NCBI RefSeq assembly: GCF_000186865.1
Contig: NW_008705562.1
Span: forward strand, 432,102 to 448,207
DNA from: Aureococcus anophagefferens
Lineage: Eukaryota > Sar > Pelagophyceae > Pelagomonadales > Pelagomonadaceae
DNA length: 16,106 nt
Direction of reading: 5' to 3'
How positions within the stretch are numbered: the stretch's first letter is position 1; every line of letters begins with the position of its first letter. The notes below the pieces were generated by a model, which ran no database searches, had not been told where the DNA came from, and saw only the letters and a program-made list of their open reading frames with translations. Made by a program: the position numbers and the translations under genes. This document shows positions 1 to 16,106 of the stretch, one piece after another.

Positions 1-1837
1 CGGGATGTAGAAGGACACGTGCTTGATGGGCGGCCCCTCCGTGCGGCGGAGGAGCGTCGCGTCGCGCCGCCGGTAGAAGAGCAGCGCCGGCGCCGTGGAC
101 CCCGCGGGCGGCGGCGGCGCCGGCGCCGCGGCGCCCCGCGATGGCGCGTACTCGACCCAGTCGTGGCTCACGGCGTCGAGCGCGACGGAGACCGGAGACC
201 CGTCGGCCGCTTCGCCGACGACGGCGTAGAGGTCGTAGCAGGGGTGCGCCTGCTTCGCCGCCGGCATGGCCCAGGGGGCGAGGTCCAGGTTCCGCGCGGG
301 GAACGTCCGCAGGCCCGCGGGCACCTGGAGCACCTGCGTGGAACTCAACCGGTGAGCCGGGACGGCCAAACTCGGAGATATCTCGCTCGGTCACATTCGG
401 GTGATACTTGGACGAATCGATGGCTCTCGTCGAGTTCTCGAAGCACGGTCGAAGAGCTTTGTGTCGAGACCGCTCTCCATTGAAGTCGGGTGGAAGATTC
501 GAGTTCCGCGCGGTGGTTTCACGAGATGCTCGGGCGCGACGCAGAGCCGCGTCTTCACGAAGCCGTCGCCTGGGCAGCGAAAGAGTGATTCAACGTCGCT
601 TCAACGTGAGCGTTCCGCGCGCGCGCGTTACAGAAAACACATCCACGCTTCGAGACCGTTCCGAGAGATGATCGCTCGTCCAAAAATCAGCCGAAACGAG
701 CGGAAAACGGCCGAGAGAGGAGCCTTTGAAGTTGGGAATGTCGCTCTCTCTTGCTGCCCTGGCCGTCGCCGACGACGCCGTGGAACTCGACGTCGGCTTT
801 GGGCTCCGGCTCCTCGAAGAGCCGCGCGAGGCACGCCGCGAGGTCGGGGCCGCCGTCGGGCACGGGCAGCACGAGGAACGCCCCAAAGTCCTTCGTCGCG
901 ACCTCGCCCGGCTCCGCCGCGGGCCGGTGCGTGCGCATGAGGCGCCCCAGGAAGACGTCGCGGACGATGGACAGGTCCAGGGACGCGTCGACGTCCGCGG
1001 CGCCCTTGGCGTTGACCTCGTCGGACTTCTTGTCGTCGTAGAACCACGCCAGCGTCTCCCTTTCCCCGCGGAACAAATTGAGGTCGTGGTGGAGCACGTC
1101 GAGCAGCGCCCCGAGCAGAGCGCCCGGCGCCTCGCCGACGTCCGGCCGCGCGGCCTTGAGCGCCGCGAAGACGTCGCCCGCGGCGCGCTCGCCCGCGAAG
1201 ACCTTGCGGAGCTGCCGCGCCTGGGCGGGAACGGGGCGATTCGACGTCGCTTCAATGTGAGCGTTCCGCGCGCGCGCGTTCCAGAATCCACGCTTCGAGA
1301 CCGTTTCGAGCGATGATCGCTCGTCCAAAAGTCAGCCGAAACGAGTGGCAAACGGCCGAGCTAGGAGCCTCTGAAGTTGGGCACGTCGCGCCCGTGTGCC
1401 GCCCCGCGCCGCGCGAGCGCGCCGCCGCTGCCGAGCGTCTCGCCGTCGTTGCGCTCGAGCGCGTCCGTGCCCCGCCGGAAGTAGGACGCGAGGTCCGGCG
1501 TCGCCAGGAGGGCGTAGAGCACGCACATGGGCGCGCAGCCCGCGCCGCAGAGCTCGCGCGGCGCGGCTGCGCTCGCGGCGTGCGGCGCGACGGCCCTGTA
1601 CCAGCTCCACCAGGGCTCGCCGTGGTCCGTGCGCGCGCTCCGCTGGAGGTCCAGCGCCTCGCAGACGTCGCTGACGTACGTCGCCACGAGGCCGCGCACC
1701 TTGCCGTAGTCGAAACCGCCGTGGAACGCGCGGCTCGCCGCGGCGACGCGGGCCAGGTCCTTTGGTGCGAGGAAACGGAACGGGTGGCTGCCCACGCGCA
1801 GCTCCGCCTCGAGCAGCTCCACGAGCGGCTCGCTCAT
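1..1837 (-). CDS. Ubiquitin-specific-protease-like protein (C19 fold, probably inactive), four exons, 3' end off the left edge
   Basis: Proposed exons on the minus strand are 1837-1415, 1220-770, 569-523 and 333-1, giving about 418 residues with no stop before the edge. The start is the ATG at 1837; the phases at the three introns (0, 1, 0) are all consistent. A Cys-box-like segment lies near residues 94-120 (GAGCAPMCVLYALLATPDL), with Cys101 where USPs have the catalytic Cys of GNTCYMN. A finger/palm-like part follows in exon 2 (VRDVFLGRL, then FLVLPVPDG), then PEHLVLQVPAG and FPARNLDLAPW, and the CYDLYAVV strand that precedes the USP His box, ending in ALLFYRRR. The order matches USPs, but the oxyanion Asn (GNTC reads GAGC) and the His box (GHYTAY reads SPVSVA) are missing. 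I infer a non-catalytic ubiquitin-fold pseudoenzyme. Residues 18-38 faintly resemble an F-box. It diverges from the cwf21 gene across a 220-bp gap. Confidence 0.66.
334..513. mobile_element. Diverged introner-like element forming the third intron of the USP-like gene
   Basis: The predicted intron runs on the minus strand from 522 (donor CTC|GTGAAA) to 334 (acceptor CCACGCAG|GTG), 189 bp. Splicing here joins PEHL to VLQVPAG, which fits the USP core strand. The ends carry an imperfect 13-bp inverted repeat: CTGCGTGGAACTC at 334-346 against CCGCGCGGAACTC read on the minus strand from 513 to 501 (two mismatches). The core at about 396-447 resembles the core of the other elements in opposite orientation, sharing GCTTCGAGA, CGAGAG, TCGTCCAA and CCGAA in the same order. 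The target duplication is mostly decayed (only the GTG start clearly matches). It is probably an older or sister-family introner. Retention would give an in-frame TGA. Confidence 0.55.
570..761 (+). mobile_element. Introner element copy A (192 bp), second intron of the USP-like gene
   Basis: The 8-bp duplication gccgtcgc is perfect at 562-569 and 762-769. Between the copies the element starts CTGGGCAGCGAAAGAGTG and ends in TTGCTGCCCTG, forming imperfect terminal inverted repeats. In the gene (minus) direction the intron is 769-570 (200 bp), with a GC donor at the first two bases of the duplication and the acceptor CGCTGCCCAG|GCG from the repeat. Exon 2 ends ...GVV plus one base and exon 3 resumes as GDGFVKTRL, so one duplication copy is removed exactly. 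The element has no coding capacity of its own. If retained, the USP frame meets TGA at 687-689. The plus-strand sequence is taken as the forward orientation, so the element is antisense to its host gene. Confidence 0.9.
1221..1406 (+). mobile_element. Introner element copy B (186 bp), first intron of the USP-like gene
   Basis: The duplication is tgccgcgc at 1213-1220 and cgccgcgc at 1407-1414 (7 of 8 match). The element begins CTGGGCGGGAACGGGGCG and ends GTGTGCCGCCCCG; its inverted repeats match at 12 of 16 core positions, so it is older or more mutated than copy A. The interior (about 1255-1380) aligns base for base with copy A apart from scattered substitutions and a 2-bp gap. The intron on the minus strand is 1414-1221 (194 bp), donor CTC|GCGCGG and acceptor CCCGCCCAG|GCG. 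Splicing joins GGAL to ARQLRKVF in phase 0. Retention gives TAG at 1361-1363. Confidence 0.86.
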
Positions 1838-2057
1838 TTCGCGCGGGCCAGCTCACTTCCTGAACATCGTTGCATCGGCGCTGGGATCCAGGGGCAGCTC
1901 TCGATGTAGTTGACGGCAACGCCGAAAGCTGCAGAGACAACAACATCCCAACAACATCACCCCAGCTCCCTCCACAGCCTCGGCGCCGGCAAGCCCAACT
2001 CGCCTGCGCCCGCGGCAAAAAAAAAAAAAACCCAAGCACAAAACACAGAAGCCCACC
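1838..2057. promoter_or_regulatory. Bidirectional intergenic region between the USP-like and cwf21 genes
   Basis: This 220-bp gap separates two divergent start codons, so both promoters and 5' leaders must lie here or in the flanking genes. It is richer in A and C than the genes around it and has a run of 14 A at 2017-2030. The plus-strand start context is GCCCACCATG, a strong eukaryotic initiation context. No TATA box or other named motif was recognised. Confidence 0.5.
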
Positions 2058-2588
2058 ATGTCCCAGCTCGGCGGGGGCCTGCGCTGGTCCGGCGTGTCCG
2101 GCGGCCACGCGTCGAGCGCGTCGAGCCGCATCATGAACCAGGCGAAGAGCGCGCGCCAGAAGGAGGCGCTGTCGGCGCCCAAGGTCGGGTCTGCCTGCGT
2201 CGTCGAGGCCGACGACTGGCTCGCCGCCGCCGCCGCGAACCAGGCCGTGCGCGAGCGCACGGGCGCGACGGGCAACGCGTTCGCGTCCGCGGAGGCGCTC
2301 GTAAAGGAGGCGAAGCGCCAGGCCGTCGACGACGACGACGAGTTCGCCATCGAGCCCAAGCGCGCGCGCGTCGACGAGGAGGACGCGGACGAGCCGGAGG
2401 CGGCGGCGGCCGCCGCGGCCGCCGCGCCCGCGGAGGCCGGGCCGTCGCGGGACGCGAAGCGCGAGATCGAGCTCTCCGTCCTCGAGCTCCGGGACGAGCT
2501 CGAGGAGGAGGGCCTCGACGAGGACGACATCGACGCCCAGTGCGACACGCTCCGCGAGGCCCTCCTCTACAAGGCGCGCAAGGGGTAA
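2058..2588 (+). CDS. cwf21-domain protein (CWC21/SRRM2/SR140-type spliceosome factor)
   Basis: A 176-residue single-exon protein. Residues 132-171 (DAKREIELSVLELRDELEEE and onward) match the cwf21 domain: a charged helical hairpin with the IELxxLELxDELEExGLxExxI pattern. In yeast Cwc21, SRRM2 and SR140 this domain binds the spliceosome near Prp8 and Snu114, so a role in pre-mRNA splicing is inferred. The N-terminus (GGGLRWSGVSGG) is Gly/Ser-rich and loosely recalls the short conserved start of Cwc21. The middle is low complexity: an acidic stretch, a possible nuclear localisation signal at EPKRARVDEE (99-108) and an alanine run at 115-123. The domain lies at the C-terminus rather than near the N-terminus as in Cwc21, so orthology is uncertain. 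The start is fixed by a strong context just after an A-rich leader. No intron was seen. Confidence 0.78.
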   Translation: MSQLGGGLRWSGVSGGHASSASSRIMNQAKSARQKEALSAPKVGSACVVEADDWLAAAAANQAVRERTGATGNAFASAEALVKEAKRQAVDDDDEFAIEPKRARVDEEDADEPEAAAAAAAAAPAEAGPSRDAKREIELSVLELRDELEEEGLDEDDIDAQCDTLREALLYKARKG

Positions 2589-2707
2589 AACTACGGCATG
2601 TTTGCCGCAGTTGAGGCTCGCTGAGCTGAGCGGCTCTCTCCGAGGCTGTGGCATCGAGTGCGGCCGCGTCGAGGTCGTGTGCGCAGCGCCAACCGCGACG
2701 ACACAAA
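2589..2707. promoter_or_regulatory. Short gap between the cwf21 and DPM1 genes
   Basis: These 119 bp must hold the 3' end of the cwf21 gene and the promoter of DPM1, both on the plus strand. A small hairpin, CGGCA-TGTT-TGCCG (about 2594-2607), lies just after the stop codon. It may mark the 3' end, but five base pairs are weak evidence. The DPM1 start is preceded by ACACAAAATG, an A-rich context unlike the GC-rich surroundings. Confidence 0.35.
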
Positions 2708-3493
2708 ATGTCAAAAAAACAGGTCAGCGTCGTCGTCCCGACCTACAACGAGACGCTGAACCTGCGCCCGCTCACGGAGCGGCTCTTCAAGGCGACGCGC
2801 GCCGCGGCCCTCGACGTGGACCTCCTCTTCGCCGACGACGAGAGCGTGGGCTCGGTCGAGTCGGCGGCGATCGTCGCCGCGCTGCGGGGCGAGGGCTACG
2901 CCGTGCGCCTCGAGACGCGCCCGCGGTCCGCGGGCCGCGGCCTGTCGAGCGCCGTGCTCCTCGGCTTCTCCCGGGCGGCGCACGACGTCTGCGTCTGCAT
3001 GGACGCGGACCTCCAGCACGAGCCCGAGGCCGTGCCCGCCGTCTGCGCGCCCGTGCTCGACGGGGCGGCGGACTTCGCCATCGGCAGCCGGAACACGGGC
3101 GACGGCGGCATCGGCTTCGAGTGGTCGCTGCTGCGGCGGCTCATCTCCAAGGGCGCGACGCTGCTGGCGTACCCGCTGACGGCGTCGACGGACCCCATGA
3201 GCGGCTTCTTCTGCGTGCGCAAGCAGACCCTCGCCCGGGGCGACCCGAACCCCATCGGCTTCAAGATCGCCCTCGAGATCATGGTCCGCTGCGGCTGCTC
3301 CCAGGTCGTCGACGTGCCCATCACGTTCCGCGAGCGCACGGCCGGCGAGTCCAAGCTCTCGCCGAAGCAGAACGTCGAGTACCTCCAGCAGTTGGCGAGT
3401 TTGTACCTCTTCGCCTACCGGAAGACGTTGCTGGCGCTCGCGGTCGCCGGCGCCGCCCTGCTCGTCGCGCTGTACCGCGCGCTCTTCCCCTAG
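2708..3493 (+). CDS. DPM1: Dolichyl-phosphate mannosyltransferase, yeast-type with C-terminal membrane anchor
   Basis: A 261-residue family 2 glycosyltransferase that makes dolichyl-phosphate mannose from GDP-mannose and dolichyl phosphate at the ER membrane, feeding N-glycan, GPI-anchor and O-mannose synthesis. Visible motifs in order: VVVPTYNE (8-15), acidic pair Asp43-Asp44, RGLSSAV (77-83), the DAD metal site (99-101) in MDADLQHEPE, DPMSGFF, GFKIALEI, the VPITFRER acceptor-loop region and GESKLS. DPMSGFF, GFKIALE and the final hydrophobic helix (about 238-258, LLALAVAGAALLVALY) are shared with yeast Dpm1 and differ from human DPM1, which relies on DPM2/DPM3; this enzyme is therefore inferred to act as a single subunit. 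Length fits (yeast 267). The ATG at 2708 is chosen because the motifs begin eight residues later; an upstream in-frame ATG at 2648 would only add a low-complexity leader. Asp-Asp is followed by ESVGS rather than the usual G/N-S form. Confidence 0.92.
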   Translation: MSKKQVSVVVPTYNETLNLRPLTERLFKATRAAALDVDLLFADDESVGSVESAAIVAALRGEGYAVRLETRPRSAGRGLSSAVLLGFSRAAHDVCVCMDADLQHEPEAVPAVCAPVLDGAADFAIGSRNTGDGGIGFEWSLLRRLISKGATLLAYPLTASTDPMSGFFCVRKQTLARGDPNPIGFKIALEIMVRCGCSQVVDVPITFRERTAGESKLSPKQNVEYLQQLASLYLFAYRKTLLALAVAGAALLVALYRALFP

Positions 3494-3551
3494 CCATTCA
3501 TAGTGCTCGCCGCGCGTTTAGGGAGGCGGGGCGGCGCCCTGCGCGGGCGCC
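3494..3551. other. Convergent 3' ends of DPM1 and the SRPK gene
   Basis: Only 58 bp separate the two stop codons, so the 3' untranslated regions of the convergent transcripts must be very short or overlap. No AATAAA-like polyadenylation signal is visible. Confidence 0.5.
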
Positions 3552-3671
3552 CTAGACGTCCTCCTCGGAGCCGATGATCTCGCCGGCCGCGTCGACCTCG
3601 ATGGGGTCCGCGGTCGCGTCGTCGTCGTCGTCGTCGCGGTCGTCGTCGCGGTCGTCGTCCTCGAGGCTGAG

Positions 3672-3703
<32 letters not shown>

Positions 3704-6449
3704 GGGGCTCGTCGCGCTTCGATTCCGACCGCTTCGCCTCGTCGTCGTCGGAGTCCACGGGCGGCGCCTTGGACCCGTTGGGCCGGTTGAGCCACGGGTG
3801 CTGCAAACAGTCGAACGCCGTCGCGCGCCGGTCCGGGTAAAAGTCGAGCATGGGCCCGAGGAAGTGGGCGATCTCGCGCGCCTCGGCCTTGTCGTGGTGG
3901 TACTTCTGGACGAGGACGTGCTCCAGGTCCCAGAAGCGGAGGTGGTGGATGTGCTTGAGCTCGCCGCGGCGGTTGAAGAACGCGCGCGCCTTCGCCGACG
4001 ACGCCAATTTCTTCGGGTAGCGGCCCAGCAGCTCCTGCATCTGCGCCAGGTGGTCCTCGTCGCGGTCGTAGTCGCCCCCCGCCCGCGGGTCGAAGAGCAG
4101 GTCGCCGGTGAGGAGCTCGAAGACGATGCACGCGAGCGACCACACGTCCGCGGACGTGTCGTAGTCCGCGCCGACGATGACCTCCGGCGAGCGGTACTGG
4201 CGCGTCTGGATGTCCTCCGTGAAGTGCTTGTGGCGCCAGCAGGCGTTGCCCAGATCGACGACGGCGATCTCCGCGTGCTGGAGGTCCACGAGGTCGTCGG
4301 GGATGCCGTCGCCCTCGGGCGACGACGGCGCGTCGTCGCCGCCGGGCGACGGCGGCCGCGGCGGCGACGCGGGCGCCGCCGGGGTGTCCGGCGGCGGCGG
4401 CGGCGCCTCGGTCTCCGCGGCCGGCGGCGCGCCCGCGCCCGCGGCCAGCGGCGACGCCGGCGGCGACCAGCCGCCGGGCGACTTGAGGCCCCGCGGGTCC
4501 TCGTCGTCGAACGTGAAGTCGTCGCTCCCGGGCCGCGGCGACCGCGGGTCCTCGCCGCGGACGGGGCTCGGCGCGTCGTCGTCGCCGCCCGCGCGCGCCG
4601 CCGCCAGCGCGAGGCGCGACGCCAGGGGCTTGGGCGTCGCGACGACGCCGTCGTCGCCGGCGGGCAATTCCGCGGCGACGAACGCGAGGTCGACGCCGAC
4701 CAAGGCCGCGAAGGAGTCGCGCGCGGCCGCCAGCGCCGCGAGCCCGCGCGCGGGGTCGGCCAAGCCCGTGGCCTCGGGCGCCAGCAGGCTCAGGAAGCGC
4801 AGGCCCGGGATGCGCCGCTCGAGGTGGCCGAGCACCTTGAGCGCGGCCGACGGGTGGAACCGGACGGCCCACGCGGACAGCTTCGCCGCGTCCGCGTCGC
4901 CCGAGGCCCGCAGCTGGAACGCGGACACCGCCGCGTCGTCGGCGAAGGCCGCGTCGCCGTCGCCGGCCACCGCGGCGGCGCACGCGCGCGTGAGGCGGCC
5001 GTCGTCCTCGCGGCCGTCGCCGTCGACGGCGAACCGCGTCGACCCGTCGAGCACGCACCGCCACTTGCCGCCGTCGAGCGACGCCGGTTTCGCGGGCGTC
5101 GCGCGGTGGTCGCAGCCCAGGCCGCCGTAGACCCGGGGCCAGGGCGCCAGGAAGGTCACGCGGCTCCGGAGCTCGTCGTCGTCGCCGCCGCCGCCGCCGG
5201 CGTCGTCGTCGTCGCGGCGCCGGCACGGCGGCGGCGCGGCCCGCGCGGCGCCGGCCTCGAAGTTCGGCGACAGCGTCGGCCCGAGGCCCCGCGACGCGAC
5301 GACGCGGCCCCCGCAGTCGACGCGCCCGAAGGCCTCCTCGACCGGCGGCGCCGCGCGCGGCGCGGGCGCGGGCGCCGCGGGTTCCACGGCGACGGCGGGC
5401 TCCTTCTTCCGCTGCTTCTGCTTCTGCTTCTTCAGCTTCTTCTTGAGGCGCTTGCGCTCCTCGGCGCTGAGCTCGCTCGTCTGCAGCGTCGAGGCGATCT
5501 CGTCGATGCGCTCCTCGAGCGACGCCGCGGGCTCGGTCGCCGCCGCCGCGGGCGCCGGCGGCGCGGCCGCCGCGTCCGGCGGCCCGTCGCCGTCGGGCGC
5601 GAACTTGGGCGCCTTGAGGAGCACGTTCTCGGGCTTGAGGTCCGTGTGGATGATGGAGCAGCGCCGGTGGAGGAAGTCCAGGCCCATGCAGATCTGGCGG
5701 CAGACGTTCCGGACGCTATCGATGGGCAGGCCCCGGTACTCGGACTTGCGGATCACGGACAACAAATTCGCCCCGAGCATCTCGAAGACCATGCAGACGT
5801 GGCGCCCGTTGGGCCCGCTGTGCTCGAAGTGGTCCAGGAGCCGCACGACGCGGCTCGACGTCTCCGCGGGGTCCGTCTCGCCGCAGGGGCCCGTGCCGCC
5901 CTCGGCCCAGGCCTGCGCCTCGTCGTCGGCGACGCGCCGCGCGTGGCGCAGCAGGTCGATCTCGTCCAGCGCCGCGTCCGTGTAGTGGCTCGCCGATTTC
6001 TGGACTTTGAGGGCCACGAGGCGCGGCGTGCCCAAAGCCTGGCTCAGCGCGTCGCGGACCATCCAAACAGTCGAGAAGTGGCCCCACCCCAACTTCTCGA
6101 CGACGGTGTAGCGGCCGTTGAAGACGTCCCCGAGGGCCACGGGGTGGTAGCCGCCGACGCGGTAGCCCTCGGAGCCCTCGCCGTCGAGCTCGCTCACGTC
6201 GCTGCCGCCGTCGCTCCCGGACGCGGACGAGCCCTCGGAGTCGTCGCGCCGCGAGTCGAAGGACCCGTCGCTCGAGCCGCTGTCGTAGGTCACGCGGCCC
6301 GTCGTTGCTTCGCCCGGGGGCGCGCCGCGGTCGCCCGACGGGGCGCCGGGGTCCTTGCGCTCGTCGTCGCTCCCGCTGCTCAGCGACGCCGCGCTCTCCG
6401 GCGCCGGCTCCGCCGCGGGCTTCTTCGCGCCCTTGCGCTTCTTGCCCAT
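3552..6449 (-). CDS. SRPK-type SR-protein kinase with split kinase domain and long spacer
   Basis: A 965-residue single-exon protein. The first kinase half spans about residues 108-281: glycine loop GWGHFSTVW (121-129), VALKVQK with Lys148, helix-C Glu163, and the SRPK-typical catalytic loop HTDLKPENV with Asp270 and Asn275. The second half, about 722-885, starts with VDLGNACW (Asp732; SRPKs have DLG for DFG) and HFTEDIQTRQYRSPEV, and ends at HPWL. SRPKs phosphorylate Arg-Ser domains of splicing factors and move between cytoplasm and nucleus; the spacer controls that in known members. The 440-residue spacer here has a Lys-rich stretch near 335-350 and an unusual hydrophobic block (about 430-610). 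The N-terminus is Ser/Asp/Gly-rich, and the C-terminus (about 905-950) is almost pure Asp, encoded by GTC repeats in the plus strand. The start ATG at 6449 has a good context (GCGCCATGG). Confidence 0.93.
3610..3712. repeat. GTC triplet repeat coding for a poly-Asp tail
   Basis: Runs of gtc (gac on the coding strand), interrupted by short cgg or ctc units, encode the acidic tail of the SRPK-like protein. Such triplet tracts tend to vary in length between strains by slippage. The low-complexity tail may be a disordered acidic segment. Confidence 0.75.
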
Positions 6450-6663
6450 GGCGCGCGGTGTTCCCTACGTCGATCTCTGTGCTTCCGGCGCGTCTCCTTC
6501 ACCCGTGGATGCGCTGCGCCGCGCCAACAGCGTTTGTATTCGACGGCTTCGGCCGGCGAGTTTGGCCGCGCGGAGTTTGGGCCCAAGGATCGTACTTTGG
6601 GCGAGCCGGTGACGGTCACGCCACGCACGTCGCCACGCCCTGAGTACGCGCTCGACCAATTAC
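6450..6663. promoter_or_regulatory. Region upstream of the SRPK gene, downstream of the C2-PPPDE gene
   Basis: This 214-bp gap between two minus-strand genes holds the SRPK promoter and the 3' end of the C2-PPPDE gene. It is lower in GC than the genes. A short perfect palindrome GTGAC-G-GTCAC lies at 6609-6619 and could be a protein-binding site. CCAAT occurs on the plus strand at about 6656. No gene was seen. Confidence 0.4.
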
Positions 6664-8016
6664 TCACGCGACGCTCGACTTGCCGCGCCAGAGCGCGCGG
6701 AACCGGTCCTGGAGGCTGCCCGCGCGCTTCTCGCGCGGCGCCGGCCCGGGCTCGGACTTGCGGCCCGCGGCGCGCGGGTCCGAGCTCGCGGTGAGGAGCG
6801 CCCGCTGGGACCGGGCCTTGGCCCGGCCCATCTTCGCCCGCGCCGCGGCCGTGATGCGTGCGGCCATGCAGTTGTCCACCAGGGCCTCGCCGGGGTCGAC
6901 GGAGAGGCGGTAGGGGCTCGCGTCGTCGTCGTCCTCGCCGTCGTCCTCGCCGAGGTTGCCTTCGCTCGTCAACGTCAGCAGCACGTCCCTCGGCGTCTGC
7001 AGCGGGCTCACGGACGCCGCGTGGGCCTGGGGCGTCGGCAGCACGGGCAGCGGCTTCGAGCCGAAGGCGACCTGGAGGCCCGCGCCGACTTTCGCGAGCT
7101 CGTAGACCCAGCCGGGGATCGTGCCCACGCCGAGCTCCAAAGCAAACTCCTTGCAGAAGAAGCAGCAGTTCTTCAAGAGTAAATTGTAGGTCGGCGCCAT
7201 CCAGTCCGCGGCCATGCGATGCAAGATGGCCAACGTCTGCCGCCGCGTCAGGCCGCAGTCCCCCAGGTAAATGGACTCGCGGTAGGTGTGGAAGGGGCAC
7301 TTGCGCGGGTTCGAGCTGAAGATGCCCGGCATGGCCTTGTTGGACCCCGCGAAGGTGAACTCCTTGCCGTAGACTTCGATCGCGCCGTGGAAGACGCCGC
7401 CGGCCCGCGTGGCGGCGCCGAAGGAGTTGATGCGGCCCGTATGCACCGACCGCCCGACATCATACACGTGCAGGGTCACGGGCGCGACGGCGCGGTCCAT
7501 CATGGACACGACGGCCTCCTCGGAGTCGGACGCGAAGAGACCCAGACCGAGGAGCCCGCCGTCGAGGCCCGGCCCGCAGGTCAGGCGCCGCATGGACGGC
7601 GCCTTCTCCGGCGCGGCCTGCGGCGTCGGCTTCCGGCGCCGCACGAGGGCGCGGACCTGGACCTTGGCGCCGTCCGCGGCCGCGGCGGCCCACCACGAGT
7701 TCGGGTAGCATTTCGGGAACGTCGCGGCCTCGTAGTCGAGGAGCTTGGCCAGGGACACGCGCACGGTGCCGACGGGCGTGTCGCCGAGGGCGCCCGGCGC
7801 GACGAGCTTCACCGCGAGCTGCTCGGCGCCGCGGGGCACGGCGAAGGTCGACGCGAGCGGCGGGAAGACGACGGGGTCCGCCGCGGCCTTGACCGTGGGC
7901 GTGCGCCCGATCTCGTCGTCGCCGTGCGTCACGACGACGTAGCACGACGCCTGCGCGAGCTTCTTGCACCGCAGGACCTGGAAGAGGTGGGCCGGCTCCG
8001 CCTCCGCGGACGCCAT
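6664..8016 (-). CDS. C2 domain plus PPPDE (DeSI-type) thiol peptidase protein
   Basis: A 450-residue single-exon protein. Residues about 8-130 look like a C2 domain: a beta-rich start (LFQVLRCKKL), a central GRTPTVKAAADPVVF and the late VGTVRVSLAKLL strand. Residues about 178-310 form a PPPDE domain, the fold of DeSI deSUMOylating/deubiquitinating isopeptidases: VTLHVYDVG, then GVFHGAIEVYGKEF with the likely catalytic His210, then LLLKNCCFFCKEF with the likely catalytic Cys284, then IPGWVYELA. The 74-residue His-to-Cys spacing is close to that of DeSI-1. The family motif NCNHF reads NCCFF here, so the nucleophile lies in a cluster of three Cys. Removal of ubiquitin or SUMO at a membrane bound through C2 is inferred. 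Several usual Ca-binding Asp of C2 appear absent. The tail is basic and probably disordered. It shares a 122-bp divergent promoter with the ankyrin gene. Confidence 0.85.
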   Translation of the reverse strand: MASAEAEPAHLFQVLRCKKLAQASCYVVVTHGDDEIGRTPTVKAAADPVVFPPLASTFAVPRGAEQLAVKLVAPGALGDTPVGTVRVSLAKLLDYEAATFPKCYPNSWWAAAAADGAKVQVRALVRRRKPTPQAAPEKAPSMRRLTCGPGLDGGLLGLGLFASDSEEAVVSMMDRAVAPVTLHVYDVGRSVHTGRINSFGAATRAGGVFHGAIEVYGKEFTFAGSNKAMPGIFSSNPRKCPFHTYRESIYLGDCGLTRRQTLAILHRMAADWMAPTYNLLLKNCCFFCKEFALELGVGTIPGWVYELAKVGAGLQVAFGSKPLPVLPTPQAHAASVSPLQTPRDVLLTLTSEGNLGEDDGEDDDDASPYRLSVDPGEALVDNCMAARITAAARAKMGRAKARSQRALLTASSDPRAAGRKSEPGPAPREKRAGSLQDRFRALWRGKSSVA

Positions 8017-8138
8017 CAGCAGGATCTCTTCGGCGCCGGCGGCGGAGAGGCTGCCCGGCGTTTTTATTTCGGTTCAATATTCGTGTTTTTTTGAACCCGC
8101 AGCTTATGATGACCCCGGACTCTGCGTGATCTGGGCGG
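8017..8138. promoter_or_regulatory. AT-rich bidirectional promoter between the C2-PPPDE and ankyrin genes
   Basis: This is a 122-bp gap between divergent starts. Positions 8061-8097 are strongly AT-rich in an otherwise GC-rich region and hold the inverted repeat GGTTCAA (8071-8077) / TTGAACC (8091-8097). The minus-strand reading AAATAAAAA at about 8061-8069 could serve as a TATA-like element for the C2-PPPDE gene, about 50 bp before its ATG. Confidence 0.45.
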
Positions 8139-8861
8139 ATGTCTACGATTTGGGGCGCGGCTCTGGACGGCGATTGCGCGCGGCTTCGCGCGCTCATTGA
8201 GAGTGGAGCGAACGTTGACGAGCCAGGTTCCGTTCCCGAATACTCTGGACGTACTCTATTGATGTGCGCTGCACTCAACGGGCACGCGGATGCGGTAGAA
8301 CTCCTGCTGGACCACGGGGCTGATGTGGAATTGAAATCGGCGTCAGTCCGCGAATGGTACGCCCAATCGACCGCCCTGCACTTCGCAGCTGCTCGTGGTG
8401 TCGCACGTAGCATCGGGCTCTTACTCGGGGCTGGCGCGAATATCGACGCGACGAACGAGATTCAGCGTACTCCACTCCTATGCTTGTTGTCAAGCGGCCA
8501 GTGGAAAGAAACGATCACATCATGTGCGGCGCTCCTGATCAACTCTGGCGCGCGCGTCACTGATCGCCCTGGACGTGGTGGCGAGCACATCATTTCCGCA
8601 GTCCAAGGAGACAACCGCGAAGTAGCCAAGATGCTGCTCCGCGCGGGTGCCGAGGCTCCATGCGACTCGCGTCTCTTCTATGATACTTGGGCCAACGCGC
8701 TCGTCAAGCACGTCAAGGCCCGCGGCGGCTGGAAATCCCACGCCGCGAAGCACAAGCGCGTCCTCGTCGGCCTCGTGGCCAAGTGCACTGGCAAGCCCCA
8801 TTTCCCCGACGACGCCGCGGGTCTCGTCGTCGACTTCTACTGCCCGGTCGGAGGTTACTAA
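8139..8861 (+). CDS. Ankyrin-repeat protein
   Basis: A 240-residue single-exon protein with about five ankyrin repeats over residues 3-185. Clear units are GDCARLRALIESGANVDE, then RTLLMCAALNGHADAVELLL and STALHFAAARG. Further units run through LLLGAGANIDATNEIQRTPL and the weaker GDNREVAKMLLRAGAEA. Ankyrin repeats bind other proteins; no enzyme domain is present and the partner is unknown. Residues 186-240 leave the repeat pattern and end in a basic stretch (WKSHAAKHKRVLVG) and PDDAAGLVVDFYCPVGGY, which may be a lineage-specific C-terminal module. Base use is uneven: by hand count 8221-8280 is 32/60 GC and 8461-8520 is 29/60, while 8701-8820 is about 70%, like the neighbours. The stop codon is only 9 bp from the SMG1 stop on the other strand. 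Confidence 0.85.
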   Translation: MSTIWGAALDGDCARLRALIESGANVDEPGSVPEYSGRTLLMCAALNGHADAVELLLDHGADVELKSASVREWYAQSTALHFAAARGVARSIGLLLGAGANIDATNEIQRTPLLCLLSSGQWKETITSCAALLINSGARVTDRPGRGGEHIISAVQGDNREVAKMLLRAGAEAPCDSRLFYDTWANALVKHVKARGGWKSHAAKHKRVLVGLVAKCTGKPHFPDDAAGLVVDFYCPVGGY

Positions 8862-8870
8862 AGACGCTGC

Positions 8871-11800
8871 TTACACCCAGGGCGCCCAGCCCTCGTACAT
8901 GTGGCAGAGGACCGCCGGGTCCGTGGCCACGTCGACGAGCCGCGCGATCTCCGCGTCGCCGTCGCGCGAAAAGGCGGCGATCTTGCCCCGCGCCGACTCC
9001 AGGGCGATGTCGGCGGCCTCGGCCTTGGTCTTCTGGGGCGGCGCCTTGGGCTTGGCGTGGCCCTCGGGCGCCGGCGCGGGCCGCCGCTCCGGCGGCCGCC
9101 GCGGCGCCGCCGCGAGCCCCGGCAGGTCGAGGTCGCCGTAGGACACGCCCGTGAGGTCGTCGAGGTCGTCGCGGGAATCGAGGCGCACGGGGTCGTCGGC
9201 GTCGACGCGCAACGCGTCGAGGGCCGTGCGCCGCGCGCGCGCCGCGAGCCGCAGGAGCCGCGCCGCGAGCACGCGGACGTAGCCCGCGGGCCGGTCCTCG
9301 GCCCGCAGGTCCGACGCGAGTAAACGCAGGAAGTCGGGCCGCACGTCGCCGTCGCGGAAGGAGCGCTGGCCCGCGCGGTCCGGCGCGAAGTCGGCCTCGC
9401 GCGCGTCCGCGTCGCGGACCGCTAACGCGAATTTCTTCGTCGCGTCGTCGACGCGCTGCTTGTAGTAGGGCTGCGTCGTCTTCGTCGCCGCGGCGCCGTC
9501 GGCGAAGGCGCCGAGATCGTCTAAAGCCACGGCCACTTTAGCGCACTCGTCCCGGCTGAAGGCCTCGACGACCTTGACGTCCGCGCGCTCGAGCTCGTAG
9601 AAACGAGCCTCGAGCACGCGCGCCTCGACCGCGCCCGCGTCGTCGTCCACGAGCAAGCTCGCGAGCTCGCGGCTCCGCGCGCGCAGTTCGCGCCAGACGG
9701 GGTGCGCGGCGACGCGCAGCGGCGGCGGCGCGTGGGGCGACGACCCGGGCACCGCGACGGTCGCCGTCGGCGCGGCCGCGGCGGCGCCCTGGCCCGGCGA
9801 CGACGTGGCGACGCGGCGCCGCGCGGCCGCGGCCTTCTTCGCCGCGGCGACGAGGGACTCCTTGCGCAGGGCCGTGCGCTTCTCCGCGTCGCGCAACGCT
9901 TTCAGCCGCGCGTCGCAGGCCTCCCACGCGTCCGTCGCGTCCGCCCACGCGCGCGTGGCTTTGTCCTCGGCGTCGCGCGCGGCCTCGACGCGCTTCCCCG
10001 CGGCCTCGGACCGGCCGTCGTCGCCCTCGTCGGCCACCGCCGCGTCGGCGTCGAGGTCCAAGGCGCCCGTGACGGCTTTTTTGGCGTCCTCGAGCCAGTC
10101 GACGGCCGCGCGGTACGCGCGCGTCCGCGCCTGCGCGCGCCGCAGCCACGCCAGTCTCGCGGGCGCGCCCGCGTCGTCGTCGGACGGCGGCGGCGCCTGG
10201 ACCCGCGCCTCGAGGGCGGTCACGACCGGCGCCGGGCCCAGGGGCGCCGCGGACCGGAGCGACCGCGTCGACGTCTCCAGACTCTCCGCCGCGGCCGCGA
10301 GCGCGGCCGCCGCGCCGTCGAGCCGCTCCGCGGCGGCGGCCGCGCGCCGCGCGACGGCGTCCAGCGTGGCGTCGTCCCGCGTCGCCGCCGCCCGGGCCTC
10401 GAAGGTCGCGTGGACCAGGCTCCGGCAGTGGCGCGACGCGAACGCGTCCACGGCCGCGTCGTAGGCGTCGCGGCGCCGCCGCGCGGCCCCGGCCGACCGG
10501 TTCCGCGCGTCGCCCGACTCGAGCTGCTCCAGGAACGCGTCGAGCTGCGTCGCCGCCGCCAGGGCGCTCAGTTTCACGGCCGCGTCGCACTTGACGCCCT
10601 GGTGCGTCATGGCCTGGAAGCGGCGGCCCGCGCCCTCGAAGGACCGGCGCACGGCCGCCTCGAGCGGCGCGCACGACGCGCGCGCCGCCGCGCCGAGCGC
10701 CGCCGCGGCCGCCTCCTCCGCGGCCTCGAGGTCGCCGTCGACGAGCGCGCGCTCGCGCGCGCGCAGCAACCCCAGCGCCGCGCTCCGCTTGCACCGGAGC
10801 GCGCCGCGCGCCGCGGCCTCGCCGTCGACGTCCCTTAACCCGGAGACCACGGGATCGAAGAACGCGTCGAGCGCGCGGAGCAGCGTCGCGTCGTCCGGCG
10901 CCTCCGACTCGACGACGGCGACGCAGGCGCGCCAGGCGTCGCCGTCGTCGCCCGACGACGTCTCCAGCGCCCGGATCGCGAGGTCGCGCCAGTGGCGCGC
11001 GCCGTCTCGGCTCCGGTCCGCCTTCGACAGCACCGTCGCCGCGAAGAGCCGAGCGGCGTCCCTCAAGACCCGTTTCGCGCCGTCGCAGGTCTTGGCCACC
11101 GCTAAACACCGCGCGCCCGTGTCGTCGGCGATCTCCGCCTCGTCGTAGAGGGCCGACAGGCCGAGCGCCGCGTCCCGCAGCGCGTCCAACCGTTGGAGCG
11201 CGACGGCCGCGGCGCCTCGTCGCCCGCCCGCGGCCAGACACGCGTCCTCGGCGTCGGCGTCGTCGAGCTCCGCTAGAGCTAACGCAACATCGTGGAGCGC
11301 GCCCGGCTCGGCGTCGGGCCCCAGCAGGCGCGCGACGAGCTTCTGGACCCGCGTCGCGCACGACGCGACGCGCTCTTGCGGAAACGATGGGTTCGCGCTG
11401 TTCGCGACGGCCGCGTCCACGTCCCCTAAAGACGGCGTCGCGTCCAGCGTCCGCTTCAACGCTTTCAGAGCGCCGCCAAAAGCCACGTCGACGACCTTGG
11501 GGTCGCCGCGGAGCATGGACCGGCCCGCGCGGCGCGCGGAGCCGCGCGCGGCCCGCAGCGTCGCCGTCGCGCGCGCGCGCCGGTCGCCGTCGTCGACGCG
11601 GATGCCCGCGGCGACGTCCAATCTTTGCGCCGCGTCGGCCAGGCGCACCTCGAGGCTCAAAGCTTTCGCTAAGACGGCGTCGCCCGAGTCCGCGTCGCCC
11701 GCGGCGGCGACGAACGGCGAGAACGACCCGAGCGCCGCCGCGGACGCCTCGAGCGCGCGCGCGGCCGCGAGCGACGAGTCCCCCAGCGACGACCGGAAGG

Positions 11801-14800
11801 CCGCGACCTGGTCCTCCAAGGCCCGCAAAGCCTTCTCCTCGTCCTCGTCGCTGGGCTCGTCGGCCTTGGCGCGCAGCCTTTCCGCGCCCGACGCGAACGC
11901 GGCCGCTCCGTCGGTCGACGCGCCCCACGCGGACTGGGGCGTCGGGAAGAAGGGGTTGCTGAAGAGGGACGACGTCGCCGCGCGGTGGCGCTTGCGCGCC
12001 TCGAAGGCCTCGCGCGCGAGGCGCGCGCCGTCGTTTAGGAGGTCGTCGTCGCGGAGCGCGGCGACCAAATCCCGGAGCCCCGGCGCGGCCGCCTGGGCAG
12101 CAAAAGGGTGCGAAATTCCCAACTTCAAAGGCTCATATCTCGGCCGTTTTCCACTCGTTTTGGCTGATTTTTGGACGAGCGATCATCTCTCGGAACGGTC
12201 TCGAAGCGTGGATGCTTTTTTTGGAACGCGCGCGCGCGGAACACTCATGTTGAATCGAAGTTGAATCACCCTTTTGCTGCCCTGGCGGCCGCGAAGATCT
12301 CCCGGAGCTGGCCCAGGGGCAGCGGCGGCGCGTTGGACCCGTCGGCCGTCGAGACCGAACCGGCAGCGAGCAACACGGCCCCGCGCTTGTTGAGCTCGCC
12401 GACGACGGCCGCGCCGTGCGACGCGAGCAACGCGCGGACCTCGTCGCGGCCCGCGGACCGCCGCCGCGCGGCGTCCAAGAGCGCCGCGCGGTCGTCCTCC
12501 GAGGCCTGGCGCGCCCGCGCCGCGGCCTGCATGGCGTGCTCCGCCGCCGCGCGCCGGCCGCTCGCCTGCTTGCAGGCCGCGGCGGCCGCGCCGAGGTCCG
12601 CGCGCGACTTCTCCCGGAGCTTGGGCGCCTCGGCGTCGCCGTGGCCCCCCTGGGCCACGGCGAGCGCATCCAGCGCCGCGGACCGCGCGTCGAGCGCCGC
12701 GGCGAGCACGTCGCCGCGGTGCAGGCCGTCGGCGACGAGCTTGCGCCGCTGCTCGAAGCACCGCGCCGCGGAGAGCGCCAAGGTCGCGAAGCGGTCGTGG
12801 TGCGGCGCCGCGGGCGCCCCCTGGCCGTCCTCGGGCCCCTTGAGGCGCTTGCCGTGGCCCAGCGTCGCCCGCCACTCGACGCGCGCGTCGTTCGCGACGA
12901 CTTCCAGTAATTCGAGCACCGCGGCGCCCGCGGGCCCGCCGAGCGCGCGCGCCGTCTTCCGCGCCGCGGCCGCGAAGGGCCCCGCGGCGCAGCCCGCGGG
13001 CCCCAACGGAAAGCGGAGCGCCGGCGTCAGGCGGAAGGGCACGGCCTCGGGCACGCGCAGCCGCGTCCCCGCGTCGAAGCACACGCCCCAGTCGACGTCG
13101 ACGACCGAGCCGTCGCGGACGTCGAGCAAGACGTTCTCCAGGTGGCGGTCGCCTAAACCCAGCGCGTAGTTCGCGACGCAGGACCCGCCCAAACGCGCCG
13201 CGTAGGTCCGCCGCCGGGCGCACCAGTCGTCGCCGCCCTCGCTCCACCGCGCGAGCTCGCGCTCGACCATGTCGCGCGGCGCGTCGCTCGCGAGCGCGTC
13301 GTACGACGCTCTAACCGCCGCCGCGTCCCACTGCTGGCGCGGCGCCGACGCGTCGACGCCGCGCTTGGTGAGCTCCGCGTGGAAGCCCTTCGGTAGAGCC
13401 TCGTACTGGAGCTCGCGGGCCGTGCGGTCGTCGGGCCGGTCGTCGTCGTCGTGCTCGGCCGCGCGGCGGCCGCGCTTCTTCTTCGACGCGCGCGACCGCT
13501 TCGACGACGCCTCGGGCTTCTCCGGCTCCTCGCCGTTCTTCGTGAGCTTGGCCTGGCGCTCGGCGATGGCCGACGTGAGGCCCCGGCTCCACGTCGCGTC
13601 GCGGTACAAGTCGATGAGCGGCCGCGTCTGCGGCACCCACTCGATCAACCCGCTCGACCGGCTCAGCGGGAGCACGGCGTAGGTCGACACGTGGGGCGCG
13701 AAGCCGCCCTTGGCCGCCAGCGCGACGGCCTCGCGGATCGTCGTCAGCAGCTGCATGACGCGCTCGTCGAGGTGCACGTCCTCCGCTCCTTTCAACAGAA
13801 ACGACCGCCGGGACCCGTCGCCGCACGCGAACGTGAGCTTCTTGGGCCGCGTCTTGGAATTCAGGGGCACGACGTGCTCGACGAGGCGGGCCACGCGGCA
13901 GAACCCGCCGTCGCCGCCGGACACGGGGAAGTGGACCTCGCAGTCGTGCTCGGAAGCCGACGCGCCGCGCCGATCATCAGCAACAGCGTCGAGCAGCTGG
14001 CCGTCGCTGAGCCGCGGCGCGACGGTCTCGGCCTCCCAGCCCGCGTCCGCGCGCGCGTCGCCGCGGAGCTCGCCGAAGGCGTCCAGCGCCGCGCGGAACG
14101 AGTCGACGGCGTCGTCGTCGTCGTCGTCGCCGTCCGCGGCCGCCGCCTTCTTCTTGTCGACCTGCTTGAGCACGCGCTTCACGTAGGCGAGCACCGCGGG
14201 CCGCGGCGGGTCGTCGAGGCACGACCGCGCGGCGTCGACGGCCGCGCGGGCCTTGCGGTCGAAGGCGTCGCCGTAGGGGTCGCGGCCGCCCGGCCCCTGG
14301 GCGTCGGCCCGGAGCAGCGCCTCCGCGGCCTTCTCGAGCGCGCGCCGCGCGGGCGCCGCGACGCACTTGCGCTTGAGGCAGGCGACGTCGACGAGCTCGT
14401 CGAGGCGCTCCTTCGACACGGGCTCCGACGACTCGCCGCCTTTTACTTCCAACACGGACTGCCGGAGCTCGCGCTTGAGCACGAGCGCCGCGTCCTCGAG
14501 GCGCCGCACCACGGCCTTGTTCAGCGCCGCGCGCCAGCGGTCGTCGGGCAGCGTCGCGATCTGCTGCAGGTCGTCGACCGCAGAGCTCCGCGCCGCGCAG
14601 CACGCCCGAGAGCGCGAGCTCGGCCCGCAGCGTCCGCGTCGCCGCGGCCGCGCGCGCCCAGCCCGACGCCGGCGCCGCCGAGGCCGCGTGCAACGCCGCG
14701 CCGGGGCTGCTCGGCGCGTCCATGTCGTCGGCGTGGCTCTTGCGGTCCCGGCGCGCCTCGCGGCACGCGACGACGACCGCGTGGACGCCGGCCTTGGGCG

Positions 14801-16106
14801 CGTGGAGCGCGACGCGCCGCAATAGGCGGAACCAGGGCTTCTCGCCAAAGTCGGCGCCGACCTTGGCGCCGAAGCACGCGGCCAGCAGCTGGGGCGCGAC
14901 GCGGCGCCAGGCCTCCGGCGGCGTGGCGTCGGCGAGCGCGTCGACGCCCGGCGACGACTCGCCGTCGAGCACGAGGCGCGCGCCCGCGACGGCGACGGCG
15001 TGCGTCCGCGGGCCGCAGGCGTCGCCCAGCTCCAGCGCCTTGCCGAGGGCCGCCGCGGCGTCGTCCCGCGCGCCCGCGGCGGCGAAGAGGCGCCCCGCGA
15101 GGCCCCAGGCCTTGGCGCAGGCCGGCGCGACTCTGGTGCAGCACGCCGCGGCGTCGAGCGCGCGCGCGCCCGCGGGCGCCCAGCCGGGGACGAGGGCCGC
15201 GAGGCGCGACGCCGCGGTGGCGCCGAGGTCGACGTCGGACCGCGCGCACAGGAGCAGCGCCTTGCGGAGCCACGCGCCGGCGTACTCGCGCTTGCTCGCC
15301 GCGTCGCCCGCGTCGTCCGCGAGCGCCCGTTTCTCCGCGAGGAACCGCAGGCCCGGGAGCCGGCCGGTGGAGTTGGTACCCAAGACTCCACCGCCGAGGC
15401 CCTCGGCCGCGTCGAGCGCGGCGTCGAGGCACGCGGCGACCGCGCCGGGATTCCCGGGGTTTGCCTTCGCGGCCTCGTAGGCGACGAGCGGCGGCGCCCC
15501 GAACCGGAGGCGCCAGTCGTCCGCGGCCGCGCCGCGCGCCGCGACGGCCGCCCGTAGGCCGTCGGCGACGGAAGCGTCGCCGTTGCGCCGGCAGGCGGCG
15601 GCGAGCGCGGCCTCGAACTCCGCGGCGGCGGCCCGCGTCCACGGCGGCGCGTCCGCCGCCGCCGCCTGGCGTCGCCCGACGTCGAGGAGCGGCCGCGCGA
15701 AGCCGACGTCGCCGCGGCGCCGGAGCCGCTCGAGCGCCGCGGCGCCGCCGCCCCAGAAGGGCCCGCGGCGCTCCGCGGCCTTGGCCGCTATCGCCGGGCC
15801 CACGGCGTAGAGGAACGCGGGCGCGGACGCCGCGGACGCGCCGCCGAGGCGCGCGCGGGGCGCCGCCGCGGCGCCCGGGGCGTCGTCCCACTCGGCCAAT
15901 GCGAGAGCCGCGCGGCGGCGCCGCGGCGCGTCGCCGTCGTGTGACGTGGCGTCGAGGGCCACGGCGACGTCGCGCGCGTCGCCGAGCGCCGCGCGGCACC
16001 GCGCGGCGAGCTCGGCGCCGAGGTCGAGGGCGCAGGCCGGCGCCGCGGGGTCCGCGAGCCGCGCCGCGAGCTCCGCCGCGGCCGCGCCGTGCGGCCGCGC
16101 GCGACT
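8871..16106 (-). CDS. SMG1: SMG1-like PI3K-related kinase (nonsense-mediated decay), C-terminal part, 5' end off the right edge
   Basis: SMG1 phosphorylates UPF1 in nonsense-mediated mRNA decay. Proposed exons: 16106 to 12293, with one frame break near 14564-14603, and 12092 to 8871; together about 2,340 residues. The right part (16106 to about 14600) is Ala-rich helical sequence fitting a FAT/TPR-like solenoid. The kinase spans about 13940-12830: RPKKLTFACGDG, then FLLKGAEDVHLDERVMQ with the ATP-binding Lys at 13790-13792, SGLIEWVPQT, the catalytic loop GLGDRHLENVL (about 13127-13155), VDVDWGVCFDAG in place of DFG, and LRVPEAVPFRLT. These match SMG1 more closely than TOR, ATM or ATR. More than 1,000 coiled-coil-like residues follow, as in SMG1, whose long insertion before FATC is diagnostic. 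The FATC ends CHMYEGWAPWV (human SMG1 LYEGWTAWV). The stop is at 8871-8873. An introner interrupts the gene at 12093-12292. Confidence 0.92.
8874..8980 (-). other. FATC domain of the SMG1-like kinase
   Basis: The last 35 or so codons give IARLVDVATDPAVLCHMYEG followed by WAPWV and stop. This is the FATC pattern, a helix followed by a disulfide- or loop-closed aromatic C-terminus, found only at the end of PI3K-related kinases. Its presence shows that the long Ala-rich reading frame left of the introner is the tail of the kinase gene and not a separate gene. Confidence 0.9.
12093..12284 (-). mobile_element. Introner element copy C (192 bp), intron of the SMG1 gene
   Basis: A perfect 8-bp duplication gcggccgc lies at 12085-12092 and 12285-12292. 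The ends are CTGGGCAGCAAAAGGGTG and CACCCTTTTGCTGCCCTG, an 18-bp inverted repeat with one mismatch. The interior matches copies A and B in reverse complement, with a stretch of more than 50 bases identical to copy A around its centre. Relative to its host gene it sits in the opposite orientation to copies A and B. The intron on the minus strand is 12292-12093 (200 bp), donor ATCTTC|GCGGCC and acceptor GCTGCCCAG|GCGGCC. Splicing joins LREIF to AAAPGLRDL in phase 0, restoring the frame between the kinase domain and FATC. Retention gives TGA at 12266-12268. Confidence 0.93.
14101..14140. repeat. Short GTC triplet tract in the SMG1 gene
   Basis: A gtc run encodes an Asp stretch (DGDDDDDDAVDS) in the region before the SMG1 kinase domain. 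It looks like a low-complexity loop between helices. Confidence 0.6.
14564..14603 (-). other. Frame break in SMG1: one-base shift or a 40-nt intron
   Basis: Coding quality changes frame here. Upstream the protein reads TLRAELALSGVLRGAE; downstream it reads SAVDDLQQIATLPDDRW in the frame shifted by one base. Both flanking frames stay open for hundreds of codons and show family-like sequence on one side only. Two readings fit: a single extra base near 14583-14590 (sequencing error or true mutation), or a 40-nt GT-AG intron from 14603 (GGC|GTGCTG) to 14564 (CCTGCAG|CAG), since 40 leaves the needed remainder of one. Confidence 0.6.

What the first reader, a model, noticed from the sequence alone, without database searches (positions are those of the whole stretch)
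570..12284. Three copies of an introner: DNA transposons that serve as introns
Copies at 570-761, 1221-1406 and 12093-12284 share a ~190-bp sequence, CAG/CTG-ended inverted repeats and 8-bp target duplications (two perfect, one 7/8). Each sits exactly where a coding frame breaks, and removing element plus one target copy restores the protein. This fits introner elements described from Aureococcus and Micromonas (Huff, Zilberman and Roy, Nature 2016).
Basis: partly seen in the sequence, partly recalled or inferred. Interest (0 to 1): 0.88.

Follow-up and report, generated by a model that had tools for sequence, protein, structure and literature searches.

The report
Jumping DNA that becomes introns
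Three copies of a roughly 190-base jumping DNA element lie inside genes of the brown-tide alga Aureococcus, and they are likely cut out of the RNA as introns, so each insertion would leave the protein unchanged; this is a known way for genomes to gain introns.

Summary
Confirmed and, at its core, already known. Three copies (570-761, 1221-1406, 12093-12284) of one ~190-bp element have inverted ends and 8-bp duplications (two perfect, one 7/8). Proteins identify the host as Aureococcus anophagefferens. Its genome holds 1,846 matches to the element's core. In 88 of 88 testable copies the downstream flank codes on the strand on which the element ends in CAG; removing element plus one duplication keeps the frame in 83. 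The upstream duplication, the predicted donor, starts GC or GT in 85 of 89. Database proteins cross the predicted joins, and one environmental protein lacks copy 1 but keeps its neighbours. This is the introner mechanism of Huff, Zilberman and Roy (2016), whose text I could not read. No RNA was seen; splicing is inferred. Beyond the finding: in 477 exact-ended copies exactly one tip is an acceptor, yet the inner sequence occurs both ways round. A second introner family (window 334-522) sits in genes in both orientations; 8 of 17 copies carry an acceptor at both ends, the rest only at the end in use. No transposase was identified.

The parts
570..761 (-). introner copy 1, family 1, class A in gene sense (CAGGGCAGC..GCGACATT..GCTGCCCAG)
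562..569 (-). 3' target duplication of copy 1 (gene sense GCGACGGC); first bases of the next exon after predicted splicing
762..769 (-). 5' target duplication of copy 1 (GCGACGGC); its GC is the predicted donor; predicted intron is 570-769
1221..1406 (-). introner copy 2, family 1, class A, 186 bp; unused 5' tip reads CGG, acceptor CAG intact
1213..1220 (-). 3' target duplication of copy 2 (GCGCGGCA)
1407..1414 (-). 5' target duplication of copy 2 (GCGCGGCG); predicted intron is 1221-1414
12093..12284 (-). introner copy 3, family 1, class B in gene sense (inner sequence opposite to copies 1 and 2, acceptor still at the gene-sense 3' end)
12085..12092 (-). 3' target duplication of copy 3 (GCGGCCGC)
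12285..12292 (-). 5' target duplication of copy 3 (GCGGCCGC); predicted intron is 12093-12292
334..522 (-). fourth predicted intron: a diverged copy of a second introner family (5' tip CCG, acceptor CAG intact, duplication imperfect)
1..1837 (-). host gene 1 (runs off the window); its 52% relative P0016 carries the ubiquitin hydrolase domain PF00443; interrupted by three predicted introns, with a 47-base exon at 523-569
8871..15787 (-). host gene 2, PI3/PI4-kinase domain upstream and FATC domain downstream of copy 3

Best explanation
The three segments are copies of one short DNA transposon without a transposase of its own that landed in coding exons, and each is predicted to be spliced out as an intron, the donor coming from the duplicated target and the acceptor from the element's own end. 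Shown by sequence: 8-bp duplication, inverted ends, coding frame on both sides, GC or GT at the start of the duplication and CAG at the gene-sense end of the element. Inferred: a transposase supplied from elsewhere cuts and pastes the element in either orientation; insertion duplicates 8 bp; where the duplicated 8-mer starts with GY on the strand on which the element ends in CAG, the spliceosome removes one duplication copy plus the element and restores the mRNA exactly; other insertions into exons are lost by selection. In this family one tip serves as acceptor and the other does not: in gene sense the 5' tip read CAG or CGG, never CTG, in the 89 copies aligned. My preferred reason, untested, is that the family's transposase needs one tip of the CAG form while the spliceosome needs the opposite form at the other end.
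For: Anatomy of the three copies. Genome-wide family: 1,846 core matches, 477 sites with GCAGC ends, 487 with GCAGG ends. Best coding strand of the joined flanks equals the acceptor strand in 69 of 69 copies, 39 class A and 30 class B, frames agree in 67; in the wider set downstream flank 88 of 88, upstream flank 87 of 88, frames agree in 83 of 88, one further copy too short. 3' duplication starts GC 51, GT 37, GA 1 of 89; 5' duplication GC 50, GT 35, GA 2, CG 1, CC 1; its eighth base is free (C in 35 of the 80 best), so the one-sided GY demand looks like a donor and not a symmetric target taste. 20 copies chosen blind to ends: exactly one acceptor tip each. In 30 copies not fetched by an exact-end pattern the acceptor tip is intact in 30, the other tip is changed in 6 (Fisher p 0.024). 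Database proteins cross the predicted joins without a gap: P0015 (464 aa, 2,220-base contig, 75 members, source not shown) at all three joins of gene 1, P0018 (1,153 aa, 4,498-base contig, 8 members, ENA) at copy 3. P0017 (246 aa, 993-base contig, 6 members, ENA) reads straight across the place of copy 1 while keeping parts of copy 2 and of the 334-522 intron: best read as a genomic allele without copy 1.
Against: No transcript was available; P0015 and P0018 could come from RNA or from DNA lacking the insertions. The two named Aureococcus gene models do not show the join at copy 3: P0002 runs into the element and ends there, P0001 skips a larger stretch. In 5 of 88 copies the flanks were not frame-consistent, 9 of 89 have 6 or fewer of 8 duplication bases, and 4 of 89 donor positions do not read GC or GT. 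59 of the 89 were fetched by patterns that fix the ends, and 5 of 94 core matches were dropped because an end was not found. The codon model was trained on window frames that include the host gene of copy 3. No transposase with these ends was found.
Confidence: 0.93

Rival explanations
1. The copies spread as RNA: a spliced intron is reverse-spliced into another transcript and copied back to DNA, as proposed for fungal introner-like elements.
For: Copies sit in coding exons in splice-competent sense, as reverse splicing would give.
Against: 8-bp duplications in 71 of 89 copies and inverted ends are DNA-transposon marks. The inner sequence is found both ways round relative to the acceptor: 334 class A and 80 class B sites among 477 exact-ended ones, the other 63 fitting neither stricter pattern. 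An intron RNA has one sense only.
Confidence: 0.03
2. Ordinary repeats in broken genes: the elements interrupt frames and are not spliced.
For: Database gene models do not splice copy 3 as predicted.
Against: Acceptor strand matches the coding strand of the downstream flank in 88 of 88 copies and GY starts the 3' duplication in 88 of 89; unspliced insertions would ignore gene sense. The acceptor tip is intact in 30 of 30 copies not fetched by exact ends while the other tip is changed in 6. P0015 and P0018 read through the joins.
Confidence: 0.02
3. The tip rule (exactly one acceptor end) does not come from two demands on two tips but from one event that sets both tips together, for example inversion of the inner sequence between the inverted ends, or a tip triplet shared by both ends in an excised circle.
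For: Tips 189 bases apart are in complete association (r2 1.00) in 89 copies, while pairs of variable sites 120-200 bases apart, tip pair included, average r2 0.09 and 91% show all four combinations. One pair of opposite classes, L038 and L044, differs at 4 of 192 places, two of them the tips. Classes are mixed on the trees: 5 and 7 changes, 12 with the ends left out.
Against: A single origin of class B is not rejected (AU p 0.085 and 0.0997), and the heavy shuffling of sites makes counts of changes on a tree unsafe. Selection alone could remove the other tip combinations. 59 of the 89 copies were fetched by patterns that demand the same tip letter at both ends, though searches did not demand it.
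Confidence: 0.3

Closest known systems
Introner elements of Aureococcus anophagefferens (Huff, Zilberman and Roy 2016, Nature 538:533)
   Same: Same species; short non-autonomous DNA transposons, one splice site carried and the other co-opted from the duplicated target (abstract, recalled). A review says they reported insertion in both orientations (PMC10228655, passage). Their characteristic intron length of about 210 bp is cited in PMC9481584 (passage); predicted introns here are 194-200 bp (family 1 in the window) and 211 bp for the 203-bp copies of family 2.
   Different: Cannot compare further: the paper is not held. Whether it describes the one-tip rule, the two opposed classes or the double-ended second family is unknown to me.
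Introners of Symbiodinium microadriaticum (Gozashti et al. 2022, PMC9860276, Fig. 2B legend, passage)
   Same: Carry the 3' splice site and take the 5' splice site from the duplication; inverted ends.
   Different: 4-bp duplication there, 8 bp here; no sequence comparison made.
Family 4 introner of Aureococcus sp. TARA_AOS_82_MAG_00129 (Gozashti et al. 2022, Fig. 2F legend, passage)
   Same: Genus, 8-bp duplication.
   Different: That one carries both splice sites and adds 12 bases to the mRNA; the predicted splicing here adds none.
hAT and P superfamilies of DNA transposons
   Same: 8-bp duplication and a CAGGG tip fit published end rules for both (recalled).
   Different: No match to PF05699 or PF14291 in the genome (the control genomes were silent, so absence is not shown); one broken P-like match without matching ends in the stretch held.

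Membership tests
Introner (transposon-derived intron) | near-identical intron-like copies in many genes | tested here: met
   1,846 core matches; 89 distinct copies read, 72 of them 192 bp
Introner (transposon-derived intron) | splice sites exactly at the copy's borders, mRNA length unchanged | tested here: met
   GC or GT at start of the 5' duplication 85 of 89 and of the 3' duplication 88 of 89, frame kept in 83 of 88; AG at the acceptor tip 89 of 89, of which 59 had been fetched by exact ends
Introner (transposon-derived intron) | target duplication and terminal inverted repeats (in DNA-type introners) | tested here: met
   8/8 in 71, 7/8 in 9 of 89; inner end positions matched between the ends, e.g. 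9/184 in 85 of 89
Introner (transposon-derived intron) | located in genes | tested here: met
   20 of 20 end-blind copies with a coding downstream flank, 19 of 20 upstream; these were the first 20 of 100 listed exact-core places out of 1,846
Introner (transposon-derived intron) | spliced in RNA | not testable with these tools
   no reads; indirect support from P0015 and P0018
Introner (transposon-derived intron) | recent gain, absent from other alleles | tested here: inconclusive
   P0017 lacks copy 1 but keeps its neighbours; source may be DNA or part-spliced RNA
Introner (transposon-derived intron) | insertion between nucleosomes (Aureococcus, Micromonas) | not tested
   no nucleosome data; the 47-base exon at 523-569 is shorter than a nucleosome
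hAT superfamily non-autonomous element | 8-bp duplication and YARNG tip (rule recalled) | tested here: inconclusive
   8 bp met; of 477 exact-ended sites each has CAGGG at one tip and CTGGG at the other
hAT superfamily non-autonomous element | hAT transposase with the same ends in the genome | tested here: inconclusive
   no match to PF05699 or PF14291, but the control rang nowhere

The most novel reading that the evidence does not exclude
The splice direction of this introner is a switch: the inner sequence can be turned round between its inverted ends, or both tips can be reset by one event, so a single family breeds introns of both senses, always leaving exactly one acceptor tip, while the second family solves the same problem by starting with an acceptor at both tips.
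Probability: 0.3. Interest if true: 0.68.

Novelty: already known. Interest (0 to 1): 0.45.

Why it matters
How introns arise in bulk is an old question, and introners are the best current answer. The elements here belong to a species in which that answer was worked out, so the finding itself is a confirmation. The added part gives testable rules: one tip for splicing and one left over in the first family, two usable tips in the less changed copies of the second, and change seen only at the tip that splicing does not use. These rules would let one tell, from genome sequence alone, which end of an introner is under splicing constraint and how a transposon family becomes an intron maker.

Tried and rejected
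Symmetric-ended copies were searched for as possible ancestors: CAG..CTG none, CTG..CAG none, both for the GCAGC ends only; for the GCAGG ends only the 31 sites shown on both strands could be read. A viral source: the 26-base core has no exact match in viral contigs (records near the window's genome may be left out there). Autonomous partner: PF05699 and PF14291 no match with silent controls; PF21787 one match with three TAG codons, locus L089, no matching ends in the 3,447 bases held, part of which reads N. Post-insertion adaptation of wrong-way copies (only the 3' tip mutating to AG) was considered and rejected: it predicts CTG..CAG copies, of which none exist among the 477. Trees were used to count switches of direction, then trusted less because 74 to 91% of site pairs, by distance, show all four combinations. 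Seven paper searches were made; none was worded for the tip rule as such. PMC9860276 was seen as abstract, outline, passages and section 11; PMC7789003, PMC9481584 and PMC10228655 as passages only.

Full report
WHAT WAS CHECKED. Read on the minus strand, which is the coding strand of both host genes, copies 1 and 3 begin CAGGGCAGC and end GCTGCCCAG, copy 2 begins CGGGGCGGC and ends CCGCCCAG, and each is flanked by an 8-bp duplication: GCGACGGC twice, GCGCGGCG/GCGCGGCA, GCGGCCGC twice. The inverted match between copies 1 and 3 is 208 nt at 88%.

THE HOST. Two database proteins named as Aureococcus anophagefferens are printed as 100% identical to the kinase region of the window over the 401 residues searched. 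The window lies in a 49-Mb genome of 86 contigs. Copy 3 lies between the PI3/PI4-kinase domain and the FATC domain of one gene. Copies 1 and 2 lie in a gene whose 52% relative P0016 carries the ubiquitin hydrolase domain PF00443; the predicted protein itself had no Pfam match.

REMOVAL RESTORES THE FRAME. Removing 570-769, 1221-1414 and a further segment 334-522 gives one open frame of 418 residues; keeping any one of them gives an in-frame stop. The segment 334-522 was not in the finding. It is a diverged copy of a second repeated family (40 of 1,586 candidates scored; the 39 others are 73-87% alike, some over part of the length). For copy 3, removal of 12093-12292 gives 700 residues without a stop; retention gives stops.

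FAMILY SIZE. A 36-base core with up to three mismatches occurs 1,846 times and its reversed control none. Exact-ended sites number 477 with GCAGC ends (control 6) and 487 with GCAGG ends (control 1).

GENE SENSE. A codon model trained on three window frames was run on flanks. First set, 69 copies: best coding strand of the joined flanks equals the strand on which the element ends in CAG in 69 of 69, 39 class A and 30 class B; frames agree in 67 of 69. Second set, overlapping the first: 94 core matches in the loci, 5 dropped because an end was not found, 89 left, one too short to test; upstream 87 of 88, downstream 88 of 88, frames agree in 83 of 88; phases 0, 1, 2 in 32, 21, 30. 59 of the 89 were fetched by exact ends, so 20 were taken by core alone: the first 20 of 100 listed places. 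All 20 have exactly one acceptor tip. Four had been fetched before and passed; of the other 16, the downstream flank codes in the predicted sense in 16 and the upstream flank in 15.

DONOR AND DUPLICATION. 71 of 89 copies have 8/8, 9 have 7/8, 9 have fewer; allowing small shifts of the left border 73 have 8/8 and 10 have 7/8. The 3' duplication starts GC in 51, GT in 37, GA in 1; the 5' duplication, which is the predicted donor, GC in 50, GT in 35, GA in 2, CG in 1, CC in 1. Among the 80 with 7/8 or better, base 1 is G in 80 and base 8 is C in only 35. A target taste of a symmetric transposase would mark both ends; the one-sided demand fits a donor site.

THE TIPS. In class A (inner sequence ...CGAAATT first in gene sense) and class B (...ATTCAAC first) the acceptor lies at opposite ends of the same inner sequence: 334 and 80 exact-ended sites; the other 63 of 477 fit neither stricter pattern. 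Of the 477, all with A or T at the second base by the pattern, none has CAG at both outer tips and none has an acceptor at both. For the GCAGG ends the listing shows both strands for 31 of 487 sites, and all 31 have one of each, 15 class A and 16 class B by my reading. In the alignment of 89, position 2 is A 48, G 6 in class A and T 35 in class B; position 191 is A 54 and T 35. Among 30 copies not fetched by an exact-end pattern (they include the 8 best hits of the whole-element search) the acceptor tip is intact in 30, the other tip is CAG in 24 and CGG in 6 (p 0.024). So the acceptor is held and the other tip drifts.

THE SECOND FAMILY. 17 copies were found inside already fetched loci. Eight have an acceptor at both ends (CTG at the left, CAG at the right); nine have it at one end only. 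Both flanks agree on the coding strand in 15 (8 one way, 7 the other); one had a single flank to score; for the window copy the flanks disagree, likely because its upstream exon is 47 bases, and the downstream one was used. That makes 9 one way and 8 the other. By my count the tip used as acceptor is intact in 17 of 17 and the other is changed in 9 of 17 (p 0.0009). One of these tips, in L048, is placed with little certainty.

SWITCHES OF DIRECTION. Trees of the 89 copies need 7 changes of class with the three outermost bases cut off, 5 in a second run, and 12 when the ends are left out, against about 28 for shuffled labels; starred branches force 2, or 5 without the ends. A single origin of class B is not rejected (AU p 0.085, and 0.0997 without the ends). 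Site pairs show all four combinations in 74 to 91% of cases, so the family is heavily shuffled or homoplastic and trees are weak here. Against this background the two tips, 189 bases apart, are perfectly associated. The closest pair of opposite classes differs at 4 of 192 positions, two of them the tips.

INDEPENDENT PROTEIN EVIDENCE. P0015 matches the predicted gene-1 protein at 99% and is identical at the three joins; its source is not shown. P0018 holds the predicted join at copy 3 (EIFAAAPGLRD) exactly. P0017 reads the end of copy 2 and the start of the second-family intron as protein but runs VVGDGFVKTRL straight across the place of copy 1. I read this as an allele without copy 1; partly spliced RNA is the other reading. 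The named gene models P0001 and P0002 do not splice copy 3 as predicted, which speaks for poor gene models more than against splicing.

COMPARISON AND NOVELTY. This is the introner mechanism of Huff et al. 2016 in the same species; their abstract is recalled, the text was not available. A review says they reported insertion in both orientations, so that part is known. Gozashti et al. 2022 describe carried 3' sites with co-opted 5' sites. In the passages I saw I met no text on the one-tip rule; the seven searches cover open-licence papers only and were not worded for it, so I do not claim that it is unpublished.

Noticed in passing
window 334-522: Fourth predicted intron, a diverged copy of a second introner family (203 bp in 11 of 17 copies read, ends CTGTGTGG..CCACACAG where unchanged) found in genes in both orientations.
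   Followed up: partly
window 523-569: A 47-base exon is left between copy 1 and the second-family intron.
   Followed up: no
L089 (G000:C25:178372-178818): One P-element-like transposase match with three TAG codons; a degraded family-1 core (8 of 42 bases changed) lies nearby; part of the locus reads N.
   Followed up: partly
P0001, P0002 against window 11600-12700: Two deposited Aureococcus kinase gene models look wrong or truncated at copy 3; one ends in the element's own sequence.
   Followed up: partly
family-1 positions 9/184 and 11/182: Inner end positions vary together at both ends of a copy (85 of 89 and 78 of 89), as if the two ends of each copy were kept alike.
   Followed up: partly
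window 3552-6464 (-): An open frame with two matched stretches of a protein kinase domain.
   Followed up: no
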